From Paeniglutamicibacter cryotolerans (GTDB lineage: Bacteria > Actinomycetota > Actinomycetes > Actinomycetales > Micrococcaceae), in the NCBI RefSeq assembly GCF_014190875.1, contig NZ_JACHVS010000005.1, forward strand, positions 62,001 through 126,000: a stretch of DNA of 64,000 nt, written 5' to 3'. How positions within the stretch are numbered: the first letter of the stretch is position 1; each line of letters opens with the position of its first letter. This document shows positions 33,825-63,620 of the stretch, piece after piece. Position numbers and translations under genes: made by a program. The notes under the pieces are model-generated. The model searched no databases and was not told the DNA's origin. It was given only the letters and a program-made list of their open reading frames with translations.

Positions 33825-34841
33825 TCACAGTTCGGCCAGCGGGGTGTCGAGCATCCAGGCCAGTGATGAGCCGTCTACCTGCCCGTCTCGCAGGGCCTTG
33901 AGGTGTTCCTCGAGCAAGGATTGCGGAATGCGCGGTGATCGGTATGCTCGGGCACGGGGCCGGCTGAGGCAATCGGGGACCTGATGTGCCAAGAGTTGCA
34001 GCGTTCCTTCGTCCGCATGAACCAAGGCCGGGCCGGGGCGTATCCCCAGGGAGTTCAGGCGCGCGGCTAGTGCCTTGGCCGAGATCCCACTTTCCCACAG
34101 GAAACGGGCTAATTCATTGGGTGTTTGCCGGTTCCAATCCATGCCGCGCATTCGTTCGACCGGCAATAACAGGGCGAAGGCGAAGTAGTCAGCCCAGGTG
34201 GTCAGGCTCGGGCGGCGCCGACCGATGGCAACCGCACTTCCGCAGAGCAGGTATCCCAACTCCCGCGCCAAGACAAGGTTCCCCTGGAACCAGGCACCGG
34301 TCCCCCGAACCACGATGTAGGAAACTGATCCGCTGTTCATCGAACGGGCGTCGAAAGCAGGCCCCTCGGCCACGATAAAGACTCCCAGTCCGTAGGCGGC
34401 TTCGATGGCCGCCGGGAGGTCGTGAATGAACGGTTGACCGAATCGTTCCGATAACAGGGCCGCGACTGAATCTGCCGCGTCCTCCGGAGAGGTCTCCGGG
34501 GCGAACACCGGCAACGGAGGAGTCTCGAGCCCGATTTCGCGATACGCCGCAGCGGGAAAGGCCACCGTTTCGGCGATCCGGTCTCGGCTTTCCTCGCGCT
34601 GTTCAGCAGTTTTCCCGGATTCGTAGGATGGATCTCCGATACCGGTGATCAGCCAGGGAAGGGAGACACCTAGTATCGCAGCGAGGCGCGCCAGCTCTGC
34701 GGCACTGAATTTGCGTTGACCACTTAGTGACCGGCTGAGCGCATCGCTTCCCATCCCCACCGCCCGCGCCAAGGCGGCTTGGTTCATCGTGATCCGGCTG
34801 GACCCGATCGCATCCTTCACCCGCATCCCGGTTTGGTTCAT
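33825..34841 (-). CDS. XRE-type HTH protein with degenerate ImmA/IrrE-like domain
   Basis: Predicted cytoplasmic regulator of 338 aa. Start ATG at 34841 is chosen because GGGGGACC precedes it and the HTH follows at once; the frame extends further upstream without conserved content. Residues ~15-50 form an XRE HTH (MNQAALARAVGMGSDALSRSLSGQRKFS). Residues ~110-260 resemble the ImmA/IrrE peptidase fold (LGVFIVAEG, AWFQGNLVLARELGYLLCG, YFAFALLLP). The zinc-binding HExxH is replaced by RELGY at residues 193-197, so proteolysis is unlikely; it may be a ligand- or redox-sensing repressor. It is divergent from the zinc-ribbon/HDO/CDGSH/ligase genes and is their probable regulator. Confidence 0.75.
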   Translation of the reverse strand: MNQTGMRVKDAIGSSRITMNQAALARAVGMGSDALSRSLSGQRKFSAAELARLAAILGVSLPWLITGIGDPSYESGKTAEQREESRDRIAETVAFPAAAYREIGLETPPLPVFAPETSPEDAADSVAALLSERFGQPFIHDLPAAIEAAYGLGVFIVAEGPAFDARSMNSGSVSYIVVRGTGAWFQGNLVLARELGYLLCGSAVAIGRRRPSLTTWADYFAFALLLPVERMRGMDWNRQTPNELARFLWESGISAKALAARLNSLGIRPGPALVHADEGTLQLLAHQVPDCLSRPRARAYRSPRIPQSLLEEHLKALRDGQVDGSSLAWMLDTPLAEL

Positions 34842-35000
34842 GGTCCCCCGATTCATCCTCGTTATCGACATTTTCCCAACGTCGAATCCATCCAGTACAG
34901 CATTGTCTCGGGCGCACTGTTCCAAGCATTGCTCAGCAGGAGGACCGGTGTAAAGATGAATCATATACACAGGGGAACACTTCGAAAAGGAGCATTCACC

Positions 35001-35432
35001 GTGCCCCATACAACTACCGAACCCCCAGCGGGGCCGGGACGCGAACACAGAGAAAGCCATCAATTCCACAGTTCCCCGATCAGCCCACCCGATGACACCC
35101 CAACCTGTTACACATGCCACAGTTCGGATTTCTTGGTCTTTGAGAGTGCTACCGCTTCCATCGATGCTGGCGCAGAGCACCCGACACGATGGGACGTCAC
35201 CTACTGGTGCGGCAAGTGCGGTTCCTTTTACGGACACGCCACGCGGATCCCGCCCACACAGCCGTGGTTAATCGCTTCAGCTTACGAAGCCCCGGTGTAT
35301 ACCCATTGTGGACGGCCCATGCAGCAGGGTCCAGCGGAAGGCACCGCCCCAACCGATATAGAGGTCGGACAAATCCTGCGCTGCGACTGCGGTTTCCACT
35401 ACCTTTCCCCACTGCTTCCGCCAGAGGGCTGA
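35001..35432 (+). CDS. Cysteine-rich zinc-ribbon-like protein
   Basis: 143-aa protein of unknown function. GTG 35001 is preceded by AAGGAG at 34987-34992, which decides the start; the frame is open further upstream. Two ribbon-like Cys sets are visible: CYTC and WCGKC in the first half, HCGRP and RCDCGF in the second, plausible zinc or Fe-S ligands. The N-terminal ~35 residues are Pro/Ser-rich and probably disordered. It is the first gene of a plus-strand run with an HDO enzyme and a CDGSH protein, and lies divergent from the HTH/IrrE-like gene. I do not recognise a named family. Confidence 0.72.
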   Translation: MPHTTTEPPAGPGREHRESHQFHSSPISPPDDTPTCYTCHSSDFLVFESATASIDAGAEHPTRWDVTYWCGKCGSFYGHATRIPPTQPWLIASAYEAPVYTHCGRPMQQGPAEGTAPTDIEVGQILRCDCGFHYLSPLLPPEG

Positions 35433-35520
35433 TGCGCTCCGGACCCGGCTTTGCGAACACCGGGAAAAGGCACCTGTCGCTTCATTCCCGTTCAACCCAC
35501 ATCTCTTGAGGAGCAACCCA

Positions 35521-36552
35521 ATGAAAGACCTCCCCGCGGCCCGCGGCCCGCTCAGCGAAGTCTTGCGGGAAAGCCTCCTGCGCAACGACCTACCCTTGGC
35601 CATGGAAGCTTTGGAGGAGCAGGCCGCAGCAGCATTGCTCGGCACCGCTGACATTCTTTTCGATGAGGATCTGCAGATTTCGCTGTTCATCCTCTACGAG
35701 CTGCATTACTCGGGCTTTAGCTCACTCATCGACTGGTGGGAATGGCATCCGCCGCTTTTGGGATTGCGCGCACGCCTTGAGGAGGCTTTGGAGAACCGAT
35801 TGTACGGCGGTATCGGGACACTACCGCGTCCGGAACCAGGCGCAGGTGCTGTCGCCGAGGCACTCTTCGGGCTCATGGCCGGGGATGGTGGGCCCTCGGT
35901 CTCCTCCTACGTGTCCCGTCACGCTACCGAGGAGCAGACCCGCGAATTTCTGATCCACAAATCGGTCTATCAACTCAAGGAAGCCGACCCGCACACGTGG
36001 GCCATTCCCCGGCTCCGGGGTCGAGCAAAGTCAGCCATGGTGGAAATCCAAACCGATGAATATGGTGGCGGAATTCCGGGCAAGATGCACTCGGAACTCT
36101 TTGCCCACACCATGCAGGGGCTGGGACTCGATCCGGAGTTCGGCGCCTATATCGACTCCGTACCAGCCATCACCCTCTGCTCAGTGAATGTGATGTCGCT
36201 CTTCGGCTTGCATCGTCGGCACCGCGGAGCCATCTGTGGGCACTTGGCCGCCTATGAGATCACCTCTTCGATCCCCAACGCCAAATACGCCCGCGGATTG
36301 CGTCGACTCGGTTTCACGTCCCCGGTCACCGACTATTTCGACGAGCATGTAGAGGCCGACGCGGTCCACGAGCAGATTGCGGCCAGGGACATGGCCGGCG
36401 CTCTGATCGAGCAAGACCCCACCGTGGCCTCTAATGTATTCTTCGGTGCGGCAACGGTCCGCTTCCTCGATGCCTTGGTCGGACGTTGGCAACTCGACGC
36501 ATGGAAGGCTGGCACCAGTTCGCTGCGCCTGGCCTCGAAAGTGGCGGCATGA
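35521..36552 (+). CDS. Iron-containing redox enzyme (haem-oxygenase-like diiron fold)
   Basis: Predicted 343-aa helical metalloenzyme. GAGGAG at 35508-35513 fixes ATG 35521. Metal-ligand pattern of HDO proteins: Glu175 in VEIQTDEYGGG, His190 in KMHSELF, Glu246 in YEITSSIPNAKY, and the cluster Asp271/His276/Asp280/His283 in DYFDEHVEADAVHE. Related HDO enzymes cleave or oxidise C-C or C-N bonds with O2; the substrate here is unknown. The stop overlaps the CDGSH start (ATGA), pointing to a functional pair in which the Fe-S protein could deliver electrons. The ligase gene downstream suggests an amide or peptide substrate, by inference. Confidence 0.84.
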   Translation: MKDLPAARGPLSEVLRESLLRNDLPLAMEALEEQAAAALLGTADILFDEDLQISLFILYELHYSGFSSLIDWWEWHPPLLGLRARLEEALENRLYGGIGTLPRPEPGAGAVAEALFGLMAGDGGPSVSSYVSRHATEEQTREFLIHKSVYQLKEADPHTWAIPRLRGRAKSAMVEIQTDEYGGGIPGKMHSELFAHTMQGLGLDPEFGAYIDSVPAITLCSVNVMSLFGLHRRHRGAICGHLAAYEITSSIPNAKYARGLRRLGFTSPVTDYFDEHVEADAVHEQIAARDMAGALIEQDPTVASNVFFGAATVRFLDALVGRWQLDAWKAGTSSLRLASKVAA

Positions 36553-37034
36553 GCGCATCGGGCGGGGCCAGCATCACCGTGTGCCCACATGGCCCCCTGC
36601 TGGTCAGGGGAAATTTTGAGCTCCTCGACGGCGAAGGGCTTCCGGTACCCACACACCGCGGAACCATCGCATTGTGCCGTTGCGGAGGATCCGGGCTCAA
36701 ACCTTTATGCGACGGCTCCCACAAGATGATCAAGCCCACCGCGGGCTCCGAGGTAGCCTCTCCCAAGGTCCCCACCACCCCGGGCGCGAATCACACCATC
36801 AACCACAGCCCTGATCAGGAGAACACCATGGATCATTCCGCGAATCAAAATACGTCCACTGCAACGCCTTCACCCTCGGCTGACGCCCAGAAGATGAAAA
36901 CCGAAGCCACCTCCCGGGACCATGTTTCGGACCCCTCGCTCTCGGATGAAACCGGGCATGACTGGAGCGGCGAGGGCGGGGCCACCGAGCAGGGTCCGGC
37001 CACCGGCACCGAAGCATCCCCAGCCGCCCTGTGA
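36549..37034 (+). CDS. CDGSH iron-sulfur domain protein with long disordered tail
   Basis: 161 aa. Residues ~10-62 are a CDGSH domain with the complete cluster motif Cys43-x-Cys45-x2-Ser-x3-Pro-x-Cys54-Asp-Gly-Ser-His58, which binds a [2Fe-2S] cluster in known members. ATG 36549 overlaps the HDO stop. The second half is Ser/Thr/Asp/Glu-rich and probably disordered. It begins at an internal ATG (36828) that has its own AGGAG at 36817-36821, in frame. The tail could thus be an independent 68-aa product (MDHSANQNTSTATPSPS...) or a former separate gene fused by loss of a stop. Confidence 0.86.
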   Translation: MSASGGASITVCPHGPLLVRGNFELLDGEGLPVPTHRGTIALCRCGGSGLKPLCDGSHKMIKPTAGSEVASPKVPTTPGANHTINHSPDQENTMDHSANQNTSTATPSPSADAQKMKTEATSRDHVSDPSLSDETGHDWSGEGGATEQGPATGTEASPAAL

Positions 37035-37119
37035 CCTATGCCCCCCACCGGGCCATCCCCGTTGCGCGGCACCACGGTTCCTTTTCGTATCCGTCCGCCC
37101 ACAATGTAAAGGTCACGTG

Positions 37120-38205
37120 ATGCGGACCTTTGGCATTGAAGAAGAGTTCTTCCTGATCGATCCGGGTACTAGCATGCCTATCCTGCCAGATGCCGAAACA
37201 GCCCGGATTTTATATGGGGTCGAAGGCGGCGGTAGCAACACCACCGCGGAGTTCTTGGCCTGTCAGGTGGAAAGTGCCACACCGGTCTGTGTGGAAGCCG
37301 CTGAGGCTCTGGCTTCGTTGCGCGGATACCGCAAGGAGCTGGCCAGGACGGCTCGTGAGCTGAATCTCCTGCCGGTGGGGGTGGGAACCCCGCCACTGAT
37401 TCCGGTAGGCAGCGCGGTCATCACTGATCAGGAACGGTACCGCAATATCAATGCGTTCCTGCCGGGCATCGGCGCCGAACAGTATGTCGGCGGGCTGCAC
37501 ATCCATGTTTCGATTCCCGATGCCGATACCGGGGTGCACGTGTTGAACTCACTGCGACCCTGGCTGCCGGTCCTCTCGGCTCTGGGTGCCAATTCGCCAT
37601 TCTGGAGGGGTGGTGATTCGGGTTTTGCCTCCTGGCGCAGCATCCAGTACCGAAAGTGGTCGGTGCAGGGCATCCAACCGCATTTCCTGGATGCGGCTGA
37701 TTACCATCGGCGGCTCGCCTTCATGTTATCTTCGGACGTGGTTCTGGACGCCGGACACATCGGATGGGCCGCACGCCTGTCCGGGCGCTACCCGACCGTG
37801 GAAATACGGATGGTCGATGCCCAGATGCGACCAGAGGATTCCCTCTTGATCGCACTGCTGGCTCGAGCCTTGGTCGATACGGCCCTTCACCGTCCCGAAG
37901 ATCCCTCTATTCCCGCCCCGGAGGCCCTGGACCTGGCCTATTGGCAGGGCGCCAAACACGGCATGACGGGCAATCAGCTTGATCCCAGATCCGGCGGCGG
38001 CACGGTCAGCACGGACCATCGCGTCTCTTCCCTACTGGAATACGTCGTGAGAGCCCTAGAGGACAATGGCGATCGGGAACTAGTGGAAGCGGGCTTGGCC
38101 CGGATCAAGAGCGAGGGCAACGGTGCCATCCGCCAGCGTCGCAGCTTCGCCGAGGGAGGCTTCGACCGGGTACTTGCCGATGCCGCCACCGAGGTGAGTG
38201 CCTGA
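37120..38205 (+). CDS. GCS2/YbdK-type carboxylate-amine ligase
   Basis: 361-aa ATP-dependent ligase of the glutamate-cysteine ligase 2 family. ATG 37120 is preceded by AAAGG and begins MRTFGIEEEFFLID, the canonical N-terminus. Family features: TAEFLACQVESATPVC, YVGGLHIHVSIPD, LSALGANSPFWRGGDSGFASWRS, and PTVEIRMVDAQMRPED. YbdK-like enzymes join a carboxylate to an amine (weak gamma-glutamylcysteine activity is known for one). It follows the CDGSH gene by 85 bp on the same strand, probably in one transcription unit. The acceptor is unknown; an amino-acid or thiol conjugate handled by the HDO enzyme is a possibility. Confidence 0.87.
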   Translation: MRTFGIEEEFFLIDPGTSMPILPDAETARILYGVEGGGSNTTAEFLACQVESATPVCVEAAEALASLRGYRKELARTARELNLLPVGVGTPPLIPVGSAVITDQERYRNINAFLPGIGAEQYVGGLHIHVSIPDADTGVHVLNSLRPWLPVLSALGANSPFWRGGDSGFASWRSIQYRKWSVQGIQPHFLDAADYHRRLAFMLSSDVVLDAGHIGWAARLSGRYPTVEIRMVDAQMRPEDSLLIALLARALVDTALHRPEDPSIPAPEALDLAYWQGAKHGMTGNQLDPRSGGGTVSTDHRVSSLLEYVVRALEDNGDRELVEAGLARIKSEGNGAIRQRRSFAEGGFDRVLADAATEVSA

Positions 38206-58478: not shown

Positions 58479-60578
58479 ATGGAAGATCACGACCACCACA
58501 AGTCAATGCCGGACATGGACCATACGGCCATCGGACACGGCATGATGAAACACGGCGCCGTGGACCATGATGAGCATGCGGTCCACACCCAGGGCCAGCA
58601 TGCCGGACACAGCACCGCCATGTTCAAAAACCGATTCTGGTTGACCCTGGCACTGTCCATTCCGGTGGTGTTCTTCAGCCCCATGTTCGGTCACCTGCTC
58701 GGGTACACCCCACCGCAGTTCCCCGGCTCGACGTGGATCGCCCCACTGCTGGGCACCATCATCTTCTTCTATGGCGGCCAACCGTTCCTCAAGGGAGGAC
58801 GACAAGAGATCAAGGCTAGGCAGCCTGGCATGATGCTGCTGATCTCCATGGCCATCACGGTCGCGTTTACCGCCTCATGGGTGACGAGCCTGGGCCTCGG
58901 CGGCTTCGATCTGGACTTCTGGTGGGAGTTGGCCTTGCTGGTAGCCATCATGCTGCTGGGTCATTGGATCGAAATGCGGGCACTGGGCTCGGCCCGCGGC
59001 GCCCTGGACGCCTTGGCGGCGCTACTGCCCGACGAGGCCGAGCGGGTCATCGACGGCGGCACCGAAACCATCAGCGTCACCGCGCTGCGCACCGGGGATA
59101 CCGTCCTGGTTCGCTCGGGGGCGCGGATGCCTGCCGACGGCATCATCACCGAGGGTTCCGCCGAGGTCGATGAATCGATGATCACCGGCGAATCAAAAAC
59201 CGTACCGCGTACCATCGGGGATCCCCTGGTGGCGGGAACCGTGGCCACCGATAGTTCGCTGCGTCTGAGGGTCACGGCTGTTGGTGATGACACCGCACTG
59301 GCCGGGATCCAACGACTCGTCGCTCAAGCCCAGGCGTCCACCTCACGCGCCCAGGCACTGGCTGACCGGGCAGCGGCGTTCCTGTTCTACTTCGCCGCCG
59401 GCGCTGGCGTCATCACCTTCATTGTGTGGTCTTTGCTGGGCAGCATCCCGGACGCCGTGACCCGCACCGTGACGGTTTTGGTCATTGCTTGCCCGCATGC
59501 CCTGGGGCTGGCTATCCCCCTGGTGATCGCCATTTCCACCGAACGAGCCGCCCGCTCCGGGGTGCTGATCAAAAACCGGATGGCTTTGGAACGGATGCGC
59601 ACCATCGATGTGGTCCTGTTTGATAAGACCGGCACGCTGACCAAGGGAGAACCTTCCCTCACCGCCGTCGCCTCGGTCCAGGGCCTGAGCACGGGCGAAT
59701 TGTTGGCCCTGGCCGCTGCCGTCGAATCCGACAGTGAACACCCGGTGGCCCGTGCCATCGTCAACGCCGCCCAGCGGACGGGGACGCCGTCAGTGACGGT
59801 CACGGGCTTCCGGTCGATGACCGGTCGCGGAGTCAGCGCAAGGCTCGGTGATTCAGTGCTTGCCGTGGGCGGTCCTGCACTATTGGCGGACCTGAACCTG
59901 ACCGAGCCCGAGGACATAGCCAGCGAAACGAAAGTATGGAAGTACCGGGGCGCTTCGGTGCTGCATGTCATGCGGGACGGCGCCGTGATCGGGGCCCTCG
60001 CATTGGAGGACGAGGTCCGGGACGAGTCCCGTCAGGCAGTTCAAGCCCTGCAGAACCGCGGTATCAAGGTCGCCATGATCACCGGAGACGCACGGCAGGT
60101 TGCCCGCGCCGTGGCCGCCGAACTGCATATTGATGAGGTTTTCGCCGAGGTCCTACCCCAAGACAAGGATGAGAAGGTCGCCGAACTGCAGGGGCGCGGG
60201 CTCAAGGTGGCCATGGTCGGTGACGGCGTCAACGATGCCCCGGCACTGGCTCGCGCCGAGGTTGGCATCGCGATCGGCGCCGGGACCGATGTCGCCATGG
60301 AATCCGCCGGTGTGGTGCTGGCCGGCAACGACCCGAGGGCCGTGTTGTCGATGGTGGATCTCTCCCACGCCAGCTACCGGAAAATGTGGCAGAACCTGAT
60401 TTGGGCCACCGGCTACAACATCATTTCCGTACCCTTGGCTGCCGGGGTGCTCGCGTTTGCCGGGTTCGTGCTTTCGCCTGCTGCCGGTGCTGTGCTGATG
60501 TCTCTCTCCACGATTGTGGTCGCCTTGAACGCGCAATTGTTGCGCCGACTCAAGCTCAACCCGGCCGACGCCAGCTGA
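58479..60578 (+). CDS. copB: CopB-type heavy-metal (copper/silver) P1B-ATPase
   Basis: 699-aa inner-membrane ATPase that exports copper. The N-terminal ~48 residues are His/Met/Asp-rich (MEDHDHHKSMPDMDHTAIGH) instead of a CxxC heavy-metal domain. The metal site in the sixth helix is Cys338-Pro-His340 (VIACPHALGLAIPLV), the CPH signature of CopB-type pumps. Further motifs: actuator loop SMITGESKTV (TGES), phosphorylation site Asp382 in FDKTGTLTKG, HP in SDSEHPVARAIV, and MVGDGVNDAPALARAEVGIA. Eight transmembrane segments are visible. The CsoR-like palindrome lies 160 bp upstream. Confidence 0.94.
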   Translation: MEDHDHHKSMPDMDHTAIGHGMMKHGAVDHDEHAVHTQGQHAGHSTAMFKNRFWLTLALSIPVVFFSPMFGHLLGYTPPQFPGSTWIAPLLGTIIFFYGGQPFLKGGRQEIKARQPGMMLLISMAITVAFTASWVTSLGLGGFDLDFWWELALLVAIMLLGHWIEMRALGSARGALDALAALLPDEAERVIDGGTETISVTALRTGDTVLVRSGARMPADGIITEGSAEVDESMITGESKTVPRTIGDPLVAGTVATDSSLRLRVTAVGDDTALAGIQRLVAQAQASTSRAQALADRAAAFLFYFAAGAGVITFIVWSLLGSIPDAVTRTVTVLVIACPHALGLAIPLVIAISTERAARSGVLIKNRMALERMRTIDVVLFDKTGTLTKGEPSLTAVASVQGLSTGELLALAAAVESDSEHPVARAIVNAAQRTGTPSVTVTGFRSMTGRGVSARLGDSVLAVGGPALLADLNLTEPEDIASETKVWKYRGASVLHVMRDGAVIGALALEDEVRDESRQAVQALQNRGIKVAMITGDARQVARAVAAELHIDEVFAEVLPQDKDEKVAELQGRGLKVAMVGDGVNDAPALARAEVGIAIGAGTDVAMESAGVVLAGNDPRAVLSMVDLSHASYRKMWQNLIWATGYNIISVPLAAGVLAFAGFVLSPAAGAVLMSLSTIVVALNAQLLRRLKLNPADAS

Positions 60579-60666
60579 TACCTGCTCCGCGGCGAACCAC
60601 CCAGCTGACACCCGTAGAATCCGCAACAACCCATTACATCCGGCCATCCACAGGAAGGAACCCGCC

Positions 60667-61161
60667 GTGCGCATGAGCAAATCCCTGCCCATCGTGGGAA
60701 CCGCCCTATCCCGGCTCGGGTTGTTCGCCGTCGTGCTGGCCCTTATCGGGGGCCTGCTTGGCATGCACACAATGGGTATCGTCCATGCAAAGGCGATGGC
60801 CTCGGCATCGATGGCCCACCCGGCGTTAGTTCTCACTCCCGCCATGGAGGGTACTGCGGGTGAGCGCACCACCACCTCACATAGCCTTGGACAGGCCAAT
60901 CTCGTCGCAGGCATGGCCAAGCCTGCCCTTCACGGTGGTCCGATCGGCTGTGGCTTCTCACCCTCCGACGATCACGCCTCCATGACCGGTCACGGGACCT
61001 GCGTCCCCTCCTTTGGCCCGGATTTTTTGGGCCTGCCGACCCCGGGGGCACTCACCTGGACCCAAGTCCGAACCGCGTTCACGAGGGCACCCGGACCCAA
61101 GTCGATGGGCCGTGTCCCCGATCCTCCCTCACTGATTCAGCTTTCGATCAACCGAACGTAA
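60667..61161 (+). CDS. DUF6153-like membrane protein (copper-island type), copy 2
   Basis: 164 aa, GTG 60667 with AAGGAA upstream. N-terminal helix ALSRLGLFAVVLALIGGLLGMHTMGIVHAKAM, again with a GMHxMGI ending, then a His/Met/Cys-containing loop (GGPIGCGFSPSDDHASMTGHGTC, in two parts). The C-terminus DPPSLIQLSINRT matches copy 1 at 55840-56289. It follows copB by 88 bp on the same strand, so a role in copper handling at the membrane surface is likely. Confidence 0.78.
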   Translation: MRMSKSLPIVGTALSRLGLFAVVLALIGGLLGMHTMGIVHAKAMASASMAHPALVLTPAMEGTAGERTTTSHSLGQANLVAGMAKPALHGGPIGCGFSPSDDHASMTGHGTCVPSFGPDFLGLPTPGALTWTQVRTAFTRAPGPKSMGRVPDPPSLIQLSINRT

Positions 61162-61251
61162 ACCGATGACCTGCCCACCGCCGTGCTGGCGGGCACCATC
61201 GGCACGCCCCAGGGGAATGCCGTTTACCTTTCGAACCCTTTTAGTGAAGGA

Positions 61252-61860
61252 ATGATCTCCTTGAAGAAATTTCTAGTCCTCTCAACCACTGCCGTCGCCA
61301 TCGCCATCGCCTTGGCCGGGTGTTCCACCGGAGCTGACGAGACCATGCCGGGCATGGACCATGGCACCTCGGCCACCGCAACCGCCCAAACCCCCGTGGC
61401 CGAGGGGGCACACAATTCCGCTGACACGATGTTCGCCCAGATGATGCTTCCCCACCACGAACAAGCCGTGGAGATGAGCGATATCATGCTGGCCAAGACC
61501 AGCCTCGATCCCCAGATCGCGATGCTGGCCCGGGACATCAAGAAAGCGCAGGGCCCGGAAATCCAAAAGATGACCACTTGGCTCACCGGATGGGGCGAGC
61601 CAACCACCATGTCCGGAAGCCACGGCATGGACGGCATGATGACCGATGCCGACCTGGAAAAACTCAAGGCAGCGCAGGGCAACGAGGCGAGCACACTGTT
61701 CCTGTCCCAGATGATCAAACATCACCAGGGTGCCGTGGAGATGGCCCGATCCGAGGTCACCGACGGAAAGGATGCCGACGCCGTGGCCCTGGCCAAGAGC
61801 ATCGTGTCCTCCCAAGGATCCGAAATCAAGGACATGAAGGACCTGCTCACGGCCTTGTAA
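61252..61860 (+). CDS. DUF305 family lipoprotein
   Basis: About 202 aa; ATG 61252 or TTG 61261 (GAAGGA lies 9 bp before the TTG). The lipoprotein signal ends AIAIALAGCSTG. After a Met/His-rich stretch (MPGMDHG), two DUF305 repeats follow, each with an adjacent His pair and Met residues (MFAQMMLPHHEQAVEMSD and FLSQMIKHHQGAVEMARSE). These are metal-binding candidates; DUF305 proteins are frequent partners of copper oxidases and pumps. A 16-bp hairpin ends the unit. Confidence 0.85.
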   Translation: MISLKKFLVLSTTAVAIAIALAGCSTGADETMPGMDHGTSATATAQTPVAEGAHNSADTMFAQMMLPHHEQAVEMSDIMLAKTSLDPQIAMLARDIKKAQGPEIQKMTTWLTGWGEPTTMSGSHGMDGMMTDADLEKLKAAQGNEASTLFLSQMIKHHQGAVEMARSEVTDGKDADAVALAKSIVSSQGSEIKDMKDLLTAL

Positions 61861-61884
61861 CAGCCCTTTCGGCCTTCCCTTTTG

Positions 61885-61920
61885 CGGTGGTGGATCCGGG
61901 ATTCCCCGGATCCACCACCG
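61885..61920 (+). terminator. 16-bp perfect hairpin after DUF305 gene
   Basis: CGGTGGTGGATCCGGG, loop ATTC, then CCCGGATCCACCACCG. It starts 25 bp after the DUF305 stop. No strong T-run follows, but the perfect stem and position fit a terminator separating DUF305 from the oxidase gene. Confidence 0.78.
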
Positions 61921-62093
61921 ACCGTTCCATTCCGACCAGCTCCTTCTGGCCTCTCGGTCCGGCACGGCCCACGGGCTGCGCCCCCCTTTGCGATGCCCTG
62001 CCCCCGCCCCCGCCCAGCAGGCCCCATCCCACGGTCGCTGGCATCATCTCTTTCGTGCCTCCTCCGGACACGCATGTCATAAAGGATTCCCCC

Positions 62094-63620
62094 ATGACCC
62101 ACCAATTAAACCGGCGTTCGTTCCTCGGGCTCTCGGTCGCCACGACCGCAGTGGCAGCCCTGGCCGCCTGCACACCCACACCGCCCGTGACCACCGGGAC
62201 TGCCCGCATCCTGCCCACCGACCCGCTCGTCACCGCCTACGAAACCCAGCGGGCGAGCACAGGAAAAACCGTCTCCCATGCCCTCACCGCGAGGTCTTTC
62301 TCCACCACCCTGGCGGGGAAGAACATCACCACCTGGGGCTACGACGGCTCTCTCGTCGCGCCGACGCTTCGCGGCATGGCCGGAGACCAGCTCAACCTCA
62401 CCATTGCCAACCAGCTTCCTGAATCCACCAGCATCCACTGGCACGGTCTCGCATTGCGCAACGATGCCGACGGGGTGCCGGGCCTCACCCAGGAAGGCGT
62501 AGGCACTGGCAAGGATTACCCCTACGATTTCAAGTTGCCGCATCCGGGCACGTATTGGTACCACTCGCATGTGGAGATGCAGCGCGAACGGGCCCTCTAC
62601 GGGGCCCTGGTCATTGATGACCCCCAGGAACCTTTGAAGTATGACAAGGAGTGGGTGATTGTCCTGGATGACTGGCTCGACGGCATCACAGGTACCCCGG
62701 ACGAGGTCTTGAAGGAACTCTCCGAGGGTATGGGCGGCATGGGGGGCATGAATCACGGCAGGGGCGACGGTGGCATGGTGATGGGACACATGCTCATGGG
62801 TGCCACCAGCGACTTTCTGGGCGTGGACGCCGGCGACGTCGCCTACCCATTCCATCTCTTCAATGGCCGGGAACCCGGGAACCCGGAGATCTTCACGGCA
62901 AAAAAGGGTGAACGGATCCGGCTGCGCATCATCAACGCGGCAGGTGACACTGCCTACCGGATCGGGGTCCCGAACCAGAAGCTCACCGTGACCCATACCG
63001 ACGGCTTCCCGGTCCAGCACATCGAGGTCGATGCCGTGGTTCTAGGCATGGGGGAACGCATCGACGCGCTTTTGACCGTCCGTGACGGCCACACCCCGGT
63101 GGTGGCCCTGGCCGAGGGGAAAGCCCAAATGGCCTACGGGCTACTCTCCACCGGGACCGGGACCCCACCGGCCAGGGGCAGCCTCCCAAAGACGTTGACG
63201 GGCAAGGTCGTGGACGGCGGCCAGCTCACCGCCGACCCGGCCGTGAGCCTGGCGACCAAGACACCTGACCGGGTCCACGAGCTTCGTTTGACCGGCGGGA
63301 TGGCGAATTACGACTGGGGCATCAACGGCCATCGCTTCGACATGGCCAAACCATTTGAAAACGCCTTTGATATCAAGGCCGGTGAGCGAGTGGAAATGAA
63401 GTTCGTGAATGACACCGAAATGTGGCACCCGATGCACATCCACGGCCACACATTCCAGGTCGGGGACACCGGGGCCCGCAAGGACACCATCATCGTCCGC
63501 CCCAAGGAAACCATCATCGTCCGGTTCGACGCCGACAATCCGGGCCAGTGGCTCTTCCACTGCCACAACGCCTACCATGCCGAACGCGGCATGATGGGCG
63601 TCTTCTCCTACGTCAAATAG
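62094..63620 (+). CDS. Tat-exported multicopper oxidase
   Basis: 508 aa. ATG 62094 with AAAGGA at 62081-62086; the frame is open further upstream but the signal peptide fixes the start. RRSFLGLSVATTAVAALAAC gives a Tat signal with a possible lipobox Cys. Copper-ligand motifs: His115-Trp-His117 (IHWHG), WYHSH, HPMHIHGHTF and His489-Cys490-His491 with His495 and Met500 (type 1 site with axial Met). A Met/Gly-rich loop (GMGGMGGMNHGRGDGGMVMGH) resembles CueO-type cuprous-oxidase loops. It probably oxidises Cu(I) outside the membrane. Confidence 0.93.
   Translation: MTHQLNRRSFLGLSVATTAVAALAACTPTPPVTTGTARILPTDPLVTAYETQRASTGKTVSHALTARSFSTTLAGKNITTWGYDGSLVAPTLRGMAGDQLNLTIANQLPESTSIHWHGLALRNDADGVPGLTQEGVGTGKDYPYDFKLPHPGTYWYHSHVEMQRERALYGALVIDDPQEPLKYDKEWVIVLDDWLDGITGTPDEVLKELSEGMGGMGGMNHGRGDGGMVMGHMLMGATSDFLGVDAGDVAYPFHLFNGREPGNPEIFTAKKGERIRLRIINAAGDTAYRIGVPNQKLTVTHTDGFPVQHIEVDAVVLGMGERIDALLTVRDGHTPVVALAEGKAQMAYGLLSTGTGTPPARGSLPKTLTGKVVDGGQLTADPAVSLATKTPDRVHELRLTGGMANYDWGINGHRFDMAKPFENAFDIKAGERVEMKFVNDTEMWHPMHIHGHTFQVGDTGARKDTIIVRPKETIIVRFDADNPGQWLFHCHNAYHAERGMMGVFSYVK

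What the first reader, a model, noticed from the sequence alone, without database searches (positions are those of the whole stretch)
33825..38205. Candidate undescribed redox system: HDO enzyme, CDGSH Fe-S protein, GCS2-type ligase and divergent XRE/pseudo-IrrE regulator
Seen directly: four plus-strand genes (Cys-rich ribbon, HDO with full ligand set, CDGSH with full cluster motif, YbdK-like ligase), the HDO/CDGSH pair sharing an ATGA overlap, and a divergent regulator. Known: HDO enzymes do O2-dependent oxidations, CDGSH proteins carry [2Fe-2S] clusters, GCS2 ligases form amide bonds. Inference: the ligase makes or caps an amino-acid/thiol substrate that the HDO enzyme oxidises with electrons from the CDGSH protein, under control of the HTH/IrrE-like sensor.
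Basis: partly seen in the sequence, partly recalled or inferred. Interest (0 to 1): 0.78.

Follow-up and report, generated by a model that had tools for sequence, protein, structure and literature searches.

The report
Diiron oxidase with iron-sulfur partner
A gene group in a soil-type bacterium pairs an oxygen-using two-iron enzyme with a small iron-sulfur protein and an amide-bond-forming ligase; the enzyme and the iron-sulfur protein are neighbours in many actinobacteria, which points to an unstudied oxidation pathway and to a possible answer to what feeds electrons to such enzymes.

Summary
The genes are real and at the stated places: HDO (35521-36552) and CDGSH (36549-37034) overlap by ATGA, a YbdK/GCS2-type ligase follows (37120-38205), and a Cys-rich gene and a divergent XRE/dead-IrrE regulator lie upstream.

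Seven invariant HDO residues match the 3His/4carboxylate ligands of SznF; the model is closest to the N-oxygenases HrmI, RohS and SznF.

HDO-CDGSH is a conserved couple: within 1.5 kb in 31 of 51 HDO-bearing genomes of a 296-genome phylum sample, in four arrangements, and within 1.4 kb in 76 of the 80 closest relatives. The ligase recurs beside it in a minority of loci, but in separate GCS2 lineages. Regulator and Cys-rich gene are local.

On plasmids of other phyla the HDO overlaps a Rieske [2Fe-2S] gene in four of five relatives read, three of them with an ATP-grasp gene: same roles, unrelated proteins.

Best reading: a small-molecule pathway in which the ligase supplies or caps an amino-acid-type substrate, the HDO oxidises it, and CDGSH donates electrons. 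Substrate and electron transfer are inferred.

The parts
33825..34871 (-). XRE-family regulator with a degenerate IrrE/ImmA (M78) domain, divergent from the operon; genus-level accessory
   Evidence: HTH_3 above cut-off, M78 20.8 against 22 bits. Where HExxH would stand (place judged by eye) there is ARELG, invariant in 7 aligned copies from 5 genus genomes (two further copies, L221 and L224, left out). Full-length relatives in 6 of the 7 other genus genomes sampled; faces the HDO gene only here and in L207
34872..35000 (.). divergent intergenic region, probable control region (overlaps the first codons if the Cys-rich gene starts at 34956)
   Evidence: sequence directly; no palindrome of 6 or more bases per arm found in 34781-35020 and only 9-10-base matches with the L207 counterpart
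35001..35432 (+). small Cys-rich (zinc-ribbon-like) protein, start uncertain (ATG 34956 or GTG 35001)
   Evidence: no Pfam/NCBIfam match; relatives, mostly weak, in 35 of 149 family genomes, own included; five genus relatives lie directly upstream of GCS2 paralogues
35521..36552 (+). HDO: heme-oxygenase-like diiron oxidase/oxygenase, PF14518
36549..37034 (+). CDGSH-type [2Fe-2S] protein with genus-specific acidic tail; ATGA overlap with HDO
   Evidence: PF09360; nearest solved 3tbm E 1.2e-10; tail and overlap compared in relatives
36828..37034 (+). possible second, in-frame start inside the CDGSH gene giving the tail as a small separate protein
   Evidence: ATG 36828 preceded by AGGAG at 36817-36821, read from the sequence; tails with an internal Met at a like place in L207-L209
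37120..38205 (+). GCS2/YbdK-type carboxylate-amine ligase
   Evidence: PF04107, TIGR02050 above cut-off, EgtA model far below; aligns with solved YbdK 1r8g and 1tt4

Best explanation
This is a small-molecule oxidation module. The GCS2-type ligase joins an amino acid, or an amine, to a carboxylate by an amide bond and so makes or caps the substrate. The HDO, with a SznF-type 3His/4carboxylate diiron site, uses O2 to oxidise it, most likely at a nitrogen. The CDGSH [2Fe-2S] protein, probably made in step with the HDO through the overlapping start codon, re-reduces the diferric site after each turnover and is thus the HDO's dedicated electron donor. In this strain a dead-protease XRE regulator probably controls the operon. 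Shown: domains, ligand set, fold class, conserved coupling of HDO with CDGSH, recurrent linkage to the ligase. Inferred: N-oxygenation, electron transfer, order of steps, the role of the regulator. Unknown: the substrate and product.
For: (1) All seven SznF ligands align and are invariant in 35 rows; they are also kept in 14 of 14 HDOs aligned (window and 6 rows of the earlier alignment included), 4 of them Rieske-partnered. (2) The fold is nearest to N-oxygenases; HrmI aligns over 315 residues. (3) CDGSH lies within 1.5 kb in 31 of 51 HDO genomes of the phylum sample, in four arrangements, and co-occurs (39 of 51 against 57 of 245, Fisher p about 1e-12, no correction for kinship). Many arrangements of one pair argue for selection rather than inherited order. 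(4) GCS2 lies beside the HDO in separate GCS2 lineages: Micrococcaceae, Microbacterium plus Leifsonia, and a distant clade that also has a HemK2-like methyltransferase; plus a Kitasatospora plasmid with GCS2, dimethylargininase, HDO, CDGSH and methyltransferase. (5) In Azospirillum, Gloeothece, Methylobacterium and Pantoea the HDO overlaps a Rieske [2Fe-2S] gene, in 3 of these 4 with an ATP-grasp gene and in 2 with a methyltransferase annotated as L11-type. Unrelated proteins, with the same cofactor in the first case, fill the same places. (6) A dedicated HDO redox partner carrying an Fe2S2 cluster, with amino-acid ligases making the substrate, is established for MboA-MboB (PMC13185094, passages read).
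Against: 12 of 51 HDO genomes have no CDGSH by this search, and several HDO loci have neither CDGSH nor any other partner sought, so CDGSH is not essential to every HDO of this family. A Gordonia plasmid with a partial HDO shows no CDGSH nearby. Of seven annotated proteobacterial HDO loci of a more distant kind, none has an annotated [2Fe-2S] gene directly beside the HDO, and Tistrella, a weaker relative of the Rieske-paired HDOs, has no Rieske gene. The ligase is adjacent in a minority: 7 of 80 closest loci within 4 kb. HrmI, the nearest fold, is 3His/3carboxylate, and HDOs with the same ligands can differ in reaction (PMC13108848, sections 4 and 11). I saw no reductase for CDGSH in the cluster. 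A glycosyltransferase-like gene takes the place of ligase or methyltransferase in many loci, which does not fit a single fixed product.
Confidence: 0.5

Rival explanations
1. CDGSH is a metallation or protection factor for the HDO: it gives iron or a cluster, or senses redox state, and keeps the labile diiron site loaded; it is not the catalytic electron donor.
For: Many HDO diiron sites are labile (PMC13108848, section 4); mitoNEET-type CDGSH proteins are known for cluster transfer (recalled). Overlapping genes fit a chaperone as well as a donor.
Against: The counterpart in other phyla is a Rieske protein, a family known for electron transfer and not for cluster donation (recalled). MboA gives its first product with Fe(II) alone (PMC13185094, passage), so at least that HDO needs no loading factor in vitro.
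Confidence: 0.17
2. The module is a stress-protection system like DtpC of Acinetobacter: the HDO, fed by CDGSH, consumes O2 or reactive oxygen, and the ligase makes a gamma-glutamyl-type protectant. No secreted natural product is made.
For: DtpC is an HDO-domain protein whose predicted metal ligands are needed for desiccation survival, and it keeps H2O2 low in dried cells (PMC13232832, abstract and sections 6 and 10 read). Actinobacterial HDO loci often lie by stress-type genes: a DUF4383 family in 14 of 81 stretches, CsbD, SigB/F factors.
Against: DtpC itself could not be compared here. A peroxide consumer would not need ligase, methyltransferase or glycosyltransferase partners. DtpC's authors also allow a small-molecule product.
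Confidence: 0.16
3. Only HDO and CDGSH form a unit; the ligase, Cys-rich protein and regulator are neighbours collected on an IS-rich replicon.
For: GCS2 genes are common: 148 of 149 family genomes. Regulator and Cys-rich genes are local. The replicon is rich in transposases and carries ParA-, relaxase- and conjugation-type genes (by eye).
Against: GCS2 beside HDO in 8 of 60 family genomes against about 0.2 expected, and in several GCS2 lineages; 5 of 5 HDO genomes of the genus sample keep the order HDO-CDGSH-GCS2 (and window).
Confidence: 0.12

Closest known systems
MboA-MboB with ligases MboC and MboD, mangotoxin cluster (PMC13185094, passages read)
   Same: HDO with a dedicated Fe2S2-containing redox partner, and free-standing ligases that make an amide-linked amino-acid substrate
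   Different: MboB is a flavin/Fe2S2 NAD(P)H reductase, not CDGSH; ligases are ATP-grasp, not GCS2; MboA has the usual 3His/3carboxylate set in three of four chains and desaturates
SznF, HrmI and RohS N-oxygenases
   Same: HDO fold; SznF has the same seven ligands
   Different: about 16-20% identity; SznF is fused to a cupin domain; other HDOs are driven in vitro by mediators such as phenazine methosulfate (PMC13185094, passage), while here a CDGSH gene is coupled
DtpC of Acinetobacter (PMC13232832, abstract and sections 6 and 10 read)
   Same: HDO-type domain linked to stress genes; the ten-residue step E143/H153 equals E180/H190 here
   Different: operon with catalase KatE; CDGSH does not occur in the text
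YbdK / GCS2 carboxylate-amine ligases (1r8g, 1tt4)
   Same: family by sequence
   Different: linked here to HDO-CDGSH; not EgtA (21.9 bits against 370.8)
HDO-Rieske clusters on plasmids of Azospirillum, Gloeothece, Methylobacterium, Pantoea (found here)
   Same: HDO with the same seven ligands overlapping a [2Fe-2S] gene; ATP-grasp gene in 3 of 4, methyltransferase in 2 of 4
   Different: Rieske in place of CDGSH, ATP-grasp in place of GCS2, longer HDO (463-475 aa)

Membership tests
HDO superfamily (PF14518) | heme-oxygenase-like helical fold and Pfam match | tested here: met
   (190.6 bits)
HDO superfamily (PF14518) | core 3His/3carboxylate dimetal ligands | tested here: met
SznF-type 3His/4carboxylate HDOs | extra Glu from an auxiliary helix | tested here: met
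   All seven ligands of SznF (numbers recalled) align with the same residue kind; E154 and E180 stand at SznF E189 and E215. By sequence alignment only; no metal was modelled
N-oxygenases (SznF/HrmI/RohS) | N-oxygenation of an amine or guanidine | not testable with these tools
   fold rank only; needs assay
CDGSH [2Fe-2S] proteins | C-x-C-x2-S-x3-P-x-C-D-G-S-H motif | tested here: met
CDGSH [2Fe-2S] proteins | bound [2Fe-2S] cluster | not testable with these tools
   needs spectroscopy
YbdK-type GCS2 ligases | TIGR02050 above its cut-off | tested here: met
   224.5 against 176.4 bits; the narrower NF010041 is just missed (327.8 against 332)
EgtA (ergothioneine) ligases | TIGR03444 above its cut-off | tested here: not met
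   21.9 against 370.8 bits
MboAB-type HDO/redox-partner clusters | flavin/Fe2S2 NAD(P)H reductase next to the HDO | tested here: not met
   partner is CDGSH
MboAB-type HDO/redox-partner clusters | ATP-grasp amino-acid ligase | tested here: not met
   ligase is PF04107
DtpC-type protective HDOs | role in desiccation or oxidative-stress survival | not testable with these tools
   DtpC sequence was not at hand
ImmA/IrrE regulator-proteases | HExxH zinc site | tested here: not met
   ARELG invariant in 7 copies from 5 genus genomes

The most novel reading that the evidence does not exclude
Small [2Fe-2S] proteins are the dedicated redox partners of a large branch of HDO enzymes, and the partner is interchangeable between folds: CDGSH in actinobacteria, Rieske in some cyanobacteria and proteobacteria. 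Around this core a ligase (GCS2 or ATP-grasp) and a methyltransferase are recruited repeatedly, so that a family of undiscovered N-oxidised amino-acid conjugates awaits. CDGSH proteins would gain a defined bacterial enzyme partner.
Probability: 0.45. Interest if true: 0.8.

Novelty: new variant of a known kind. Interest (0 to 1): 0.66.

Why it matters
HDOs number over ten thousand and about a dozen are validated (PMC13108848, section 4), and MboAB is said to be perhaps the first characterised dedicated HDO-redox partner pair (PMC13185094, passage). If CDGSH feeds this branch, the question of what reduces these enzymes in the cell becomes directly testable with two small proteins, and a bacterial role for CDGSH proteins is fixed. 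The ligase and methyltransferase neighbours give a route to the product. A survey of HDO clusters that looked for ATP-grasp ligases (PMC13185094, passage) would not, as described there, pick up GCS2 ligases.

Tried and rejected
A selenocysteine or split-gene idea: 12 family HDOs and one from another family of the class (G278) were listed with one in-frame TGA. Checked: it is the ordinary stop at the C-terminus. Ten of those 12 family loci also have a CDGSH motif just downstream (of the other two, L292 ends 136 bases past the HDO match and L296 shows no motif; the 13th, L302, shows none).

A shared operator between window and L207: L207 has an 8-base inverted repeat (TTGGTTCA, 7 bases, TGAACCAA) in its gap; no such repeat was found in the window, where only the half-site-like TTTGGTTCA occurs, inside the regulator's coding start. 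Inconclusive.

Dimethylargininase as a general partner (would suggest a methylarginine substrate as for SznF): tblastn found it only in the Kitasatospora locus among the loci searched.

HDO in the phage collection: no match. The window locus in the plasmid collection: no near match. Of 24 plasmid records with an HDO-like match I read 15; H4, H5, H8-H12, H18 and H21 were not read.

Papers. No paper held both 'iron-containing redox enzyme' and CDGSH, or CDGSH, 'heme oxygenase-like' and 'diiron' together, or three of 'heme oxygenase-like', Rieske, ATP-grasp and CDGSH; (amidoligase, ATP-grasp, COG2170) found none. Searches showed no paper on this couple among the titles and abstract starts listed (20 of 117, 20 of 130, 15 of 203, 3 of 3); one search gave only PMC13185094. 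In PMC13061610 I saw passages only, and CDGSH does not occur. The library lacks most subscription papers, so this is not proof of novelty.

Not done: a HDO-CDGSH complex prediction (the tool folds single proteins); comparison with the DtpC sequence; a genome-wide test in phyla other than the window's.

Weak points. Gene calls in the neighbourhoods come from a simple script. The 80 loci are the best of 557 and mostly Micrococcales. The 20 phylum loci were chosen because CDGSH was near, so only ligase, methyltransferase and glycosyltransferase counts there are informative. Some loci are the same contigs under two numbers (L033=L208, L034=L225, L036=L212, L078=L227, judged from contig lengths). 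The GCS2 tree is midpoint-rooted, several forks are open, and the program warns that the long rows (G357_RIB, the L229 group) may be joined falsely. One search's match list was cut, so 8 of 60 is a lower bound.
Full report
What is there. The window is positions 62001-126000 of a 163,031-base contig (C5) of a 4.14 Mb genome. The genus is probably Paeniglutamicibacter: G420 of the same genus has a contig of the same length (4,173,408) as the longest contig listed for a protein named for Paeniglutamicibacter sp. Y32M11. Family scans give PF14518 for the HDO, PF09360 for the CDGSH protein, PF04107 and TIGR02050 for the ligase, an XRE helix-turn-helix with a sub-threshold M78 domain for the regulator, and nothing for the Cys-rich protein. 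The HDO and CDGSH genes are the only ones of their Pfam families found in this genome.

The couple. In 296 genomes drawn across the phylum (own genome included), 51 hold an HDO of this family and 96 hold a CDGSH domain. 39 of the 51 have CDGSH, against 57 of the other 245 (Fisher p about 1e-12, kinship not corrected). In 31 of 51 genomes (32 of 55 HDO places) the CDGSH lies within 1.5 kb: downstream on the opposite strand 13, downstream on the same strand 12, upstream on the same strand 6, upstream on the opposite strand 1. Among the 80 closest relatives of 557 found, a CDGSH motif is in the fetched stretch in 77 and within 1.4 kb in 76; it is absent from L061, L063 and L085, and 8.7 kb away in L052; L061 ends 1 kb past the HDO. 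Four-base overlaps with ATG, GTG or TTG starts were listed for 9 of 16 loci looked at (L207-L210, L213, L226, L033, L035, L077; L033 is the same contig as L208). On plasmids, a Curtobacterium pair overlaps the same way, and in a Streptomyces the order is CDGSH then HDO, again with four bases shared. In the phylum sample 20 HDO genomes have no CDGSH within 1.5 kb; of 18 such loci read, one has a CDGSH at 2.7 kb and one at 7.2 kb.

The ligase and other partners. A HemK2-like methyltransferase (NPPY motif; TIGR00537 above cut-off in L229, L230 and L240) is near in 10 of 20 phylum loci, one of them (L246) at 3.8 kb, in 2 of 18, and only weakly in 2 of 80; it is present in all four phylum loci that have GCS2 (L229, L230, L236, L254). 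A glycosyltransferase-2/21-like gene is near in 27 of 80, 2 of 9, 3 of 20 and 4 of 18. The GCS2 tree places the HDO-linked ligases in at least three places: among Micrococcaceae sequences, Microbacterium with Leifsonia (100/99), and a distant clade L229/L230/L236 (100/100, long branch); rows not linked to an HDO lie between them, so linkage was gained or lost more than once, with the caveats on that tree given under weak points. On a Kitasatospora plasmid NCBI's annotation reads, in order, YbdK ligase, dimethylargininase, HDO, CDGSH, HemK2 methyltransferase. Twelve of the 80 close loci have a GCS2 4.5-7.5 kb away, in all but one on the opposite strand, which I count as inherited neighbourhood, not linkage.

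Local parts. Within the genus sample (window plus 7 genomes), 5 have the HDO, all 5 with HDO-CDGSH-GCS2 in the same order (window). The regulator has full-length relatives in 6 of the 7 other genomes but faces the HDO only in the window and L207; in L214 two copies flank a GCS2 paralogue. Its protease motif is lost in the 7 aligned copies from 5 genomes. Cys-rich relatives lie directly upstream of GCS2 paralogues in 5 genus loci, with no HDO in the fetched stretch (L215-L219). In this window the two pairs, Cys-rich with GCS2 and HDO with CDGSH, are combined.

A parallel in other phyla. A weak plasmid relative from Azospirillum is followed, with a four-base overlap, by a Rieske [2Fe-2S] gene. 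Searching with that HDO gave 12 plasmid records, itself included. Five cover at least 90% of the query. Four of these five (Azospirillum, Gloeothece, Methylobacterium, Pantoea; the last three 33-47% identical to the query) have an overlapping Rieske gene (4, 4, 10 and 20 bases as annotated); three of the four have an ATP-grasp gene nearby and two a methyltransferase annotated as L11-type. The fifth, Tistrella (26.5% identity), has none. Three Rhizobium and two Streptantibioticus records of that list were not read. The four Rieske-paired HDOs keep all seven ligands. Of seven other annotated proteobacterial relatives read, none has an annotated [2Fe-2S] gene directly beside the HDO; Sphingobium and Komagataeibacter have a class I methyltransferase there, and in Agrobacterium a ferredoxin-NADP reductase lies about 2.2 kb upstream (the rest); one more record is unannotated. 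Of five annotated actinobacterial plasmid loci read, four have CDGSH beside the HDO and Gordonia, with a partial HDO, has not. So redox partnering is a property of some HDO branches, not of all.

Mechanism. Established: one HDO, MboA, needs a dedicated partner, MboB (flavin and Fe2S2), for its second oxidation; chemical reductants and mediators cannot replace it, and its substrate is made by free-standing ligases (PMC13185094, passages). By analogy I propose ligase, then HDO with CDGSH as donor. The coupled overlap, the conserved pairing in varied orders and the Rieske counterpart are the arguments for electron donation. What remains inferred: that CDGSH is reduced by a general cell reductase, that electrons pass to the HDO, that oxidation is at nitrogen, and that the ligase acts before rather than after. 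The recurrence of ligase, methyltransferase or glycosyltransferase next to the same core fits variable tailoring of related products. The rival protective reading rests on DtpC (PMC13232832, abstract and sections 6 and 10 read) and on stress-type neighbours.

Verdict. New variant of a known kind; interest 0.66.

Noticed in passing
window 1-64000 and contig C5 (L269, L271): The replicon looks plasmid- or conjugative-element-like: a ParA-type ATPase, a relaxase-like protein and conjugation-type ATPases (read by eye), with many transposase genes in the window (by eye).
   Followed up: partly
window 58479-63620: Probable copper-resistance genes (P-type ATPase, multicopper oxidase, DUF305-like protein) on the same replicon, named by eye.
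   Followed up: no
window 36741-37034: The CDGSH gene has an acidic tail with a GHDW...EGGAT motif shared by genus relatives L207-L209, and an internal ATG after AGGAG; it may also be made as a separate small protein.
   Followed up: partly
L215-L219: A small Cys-rich protein gene sits directly upstream of GCS2 paralogues in five genus loci without HDO in the stretch: perhaps a second, independent ligase system.
   Followed up: partly
L059 11047-12114 and other close loci: A glycosyltransferase-2/21-like gene often sits between or beside HDO and CDGSH (27 of 80 within 4 kb); its Pfam matches are weak.
   Followed up: partly
L283 3094-3915: A dimethylargininase gene lies between GCS2 ligase and HDO on a Kitasatospora plasmid, a hint at arginine-type substrates.
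   Followed up: partly
L286, L287, L288: HDO-Rieske clusters with an ATP-grasp gene nearby on plasmids of a cyanobacterium and two proteobacteria; one search of the held papers found no description.
   Followed up: partly
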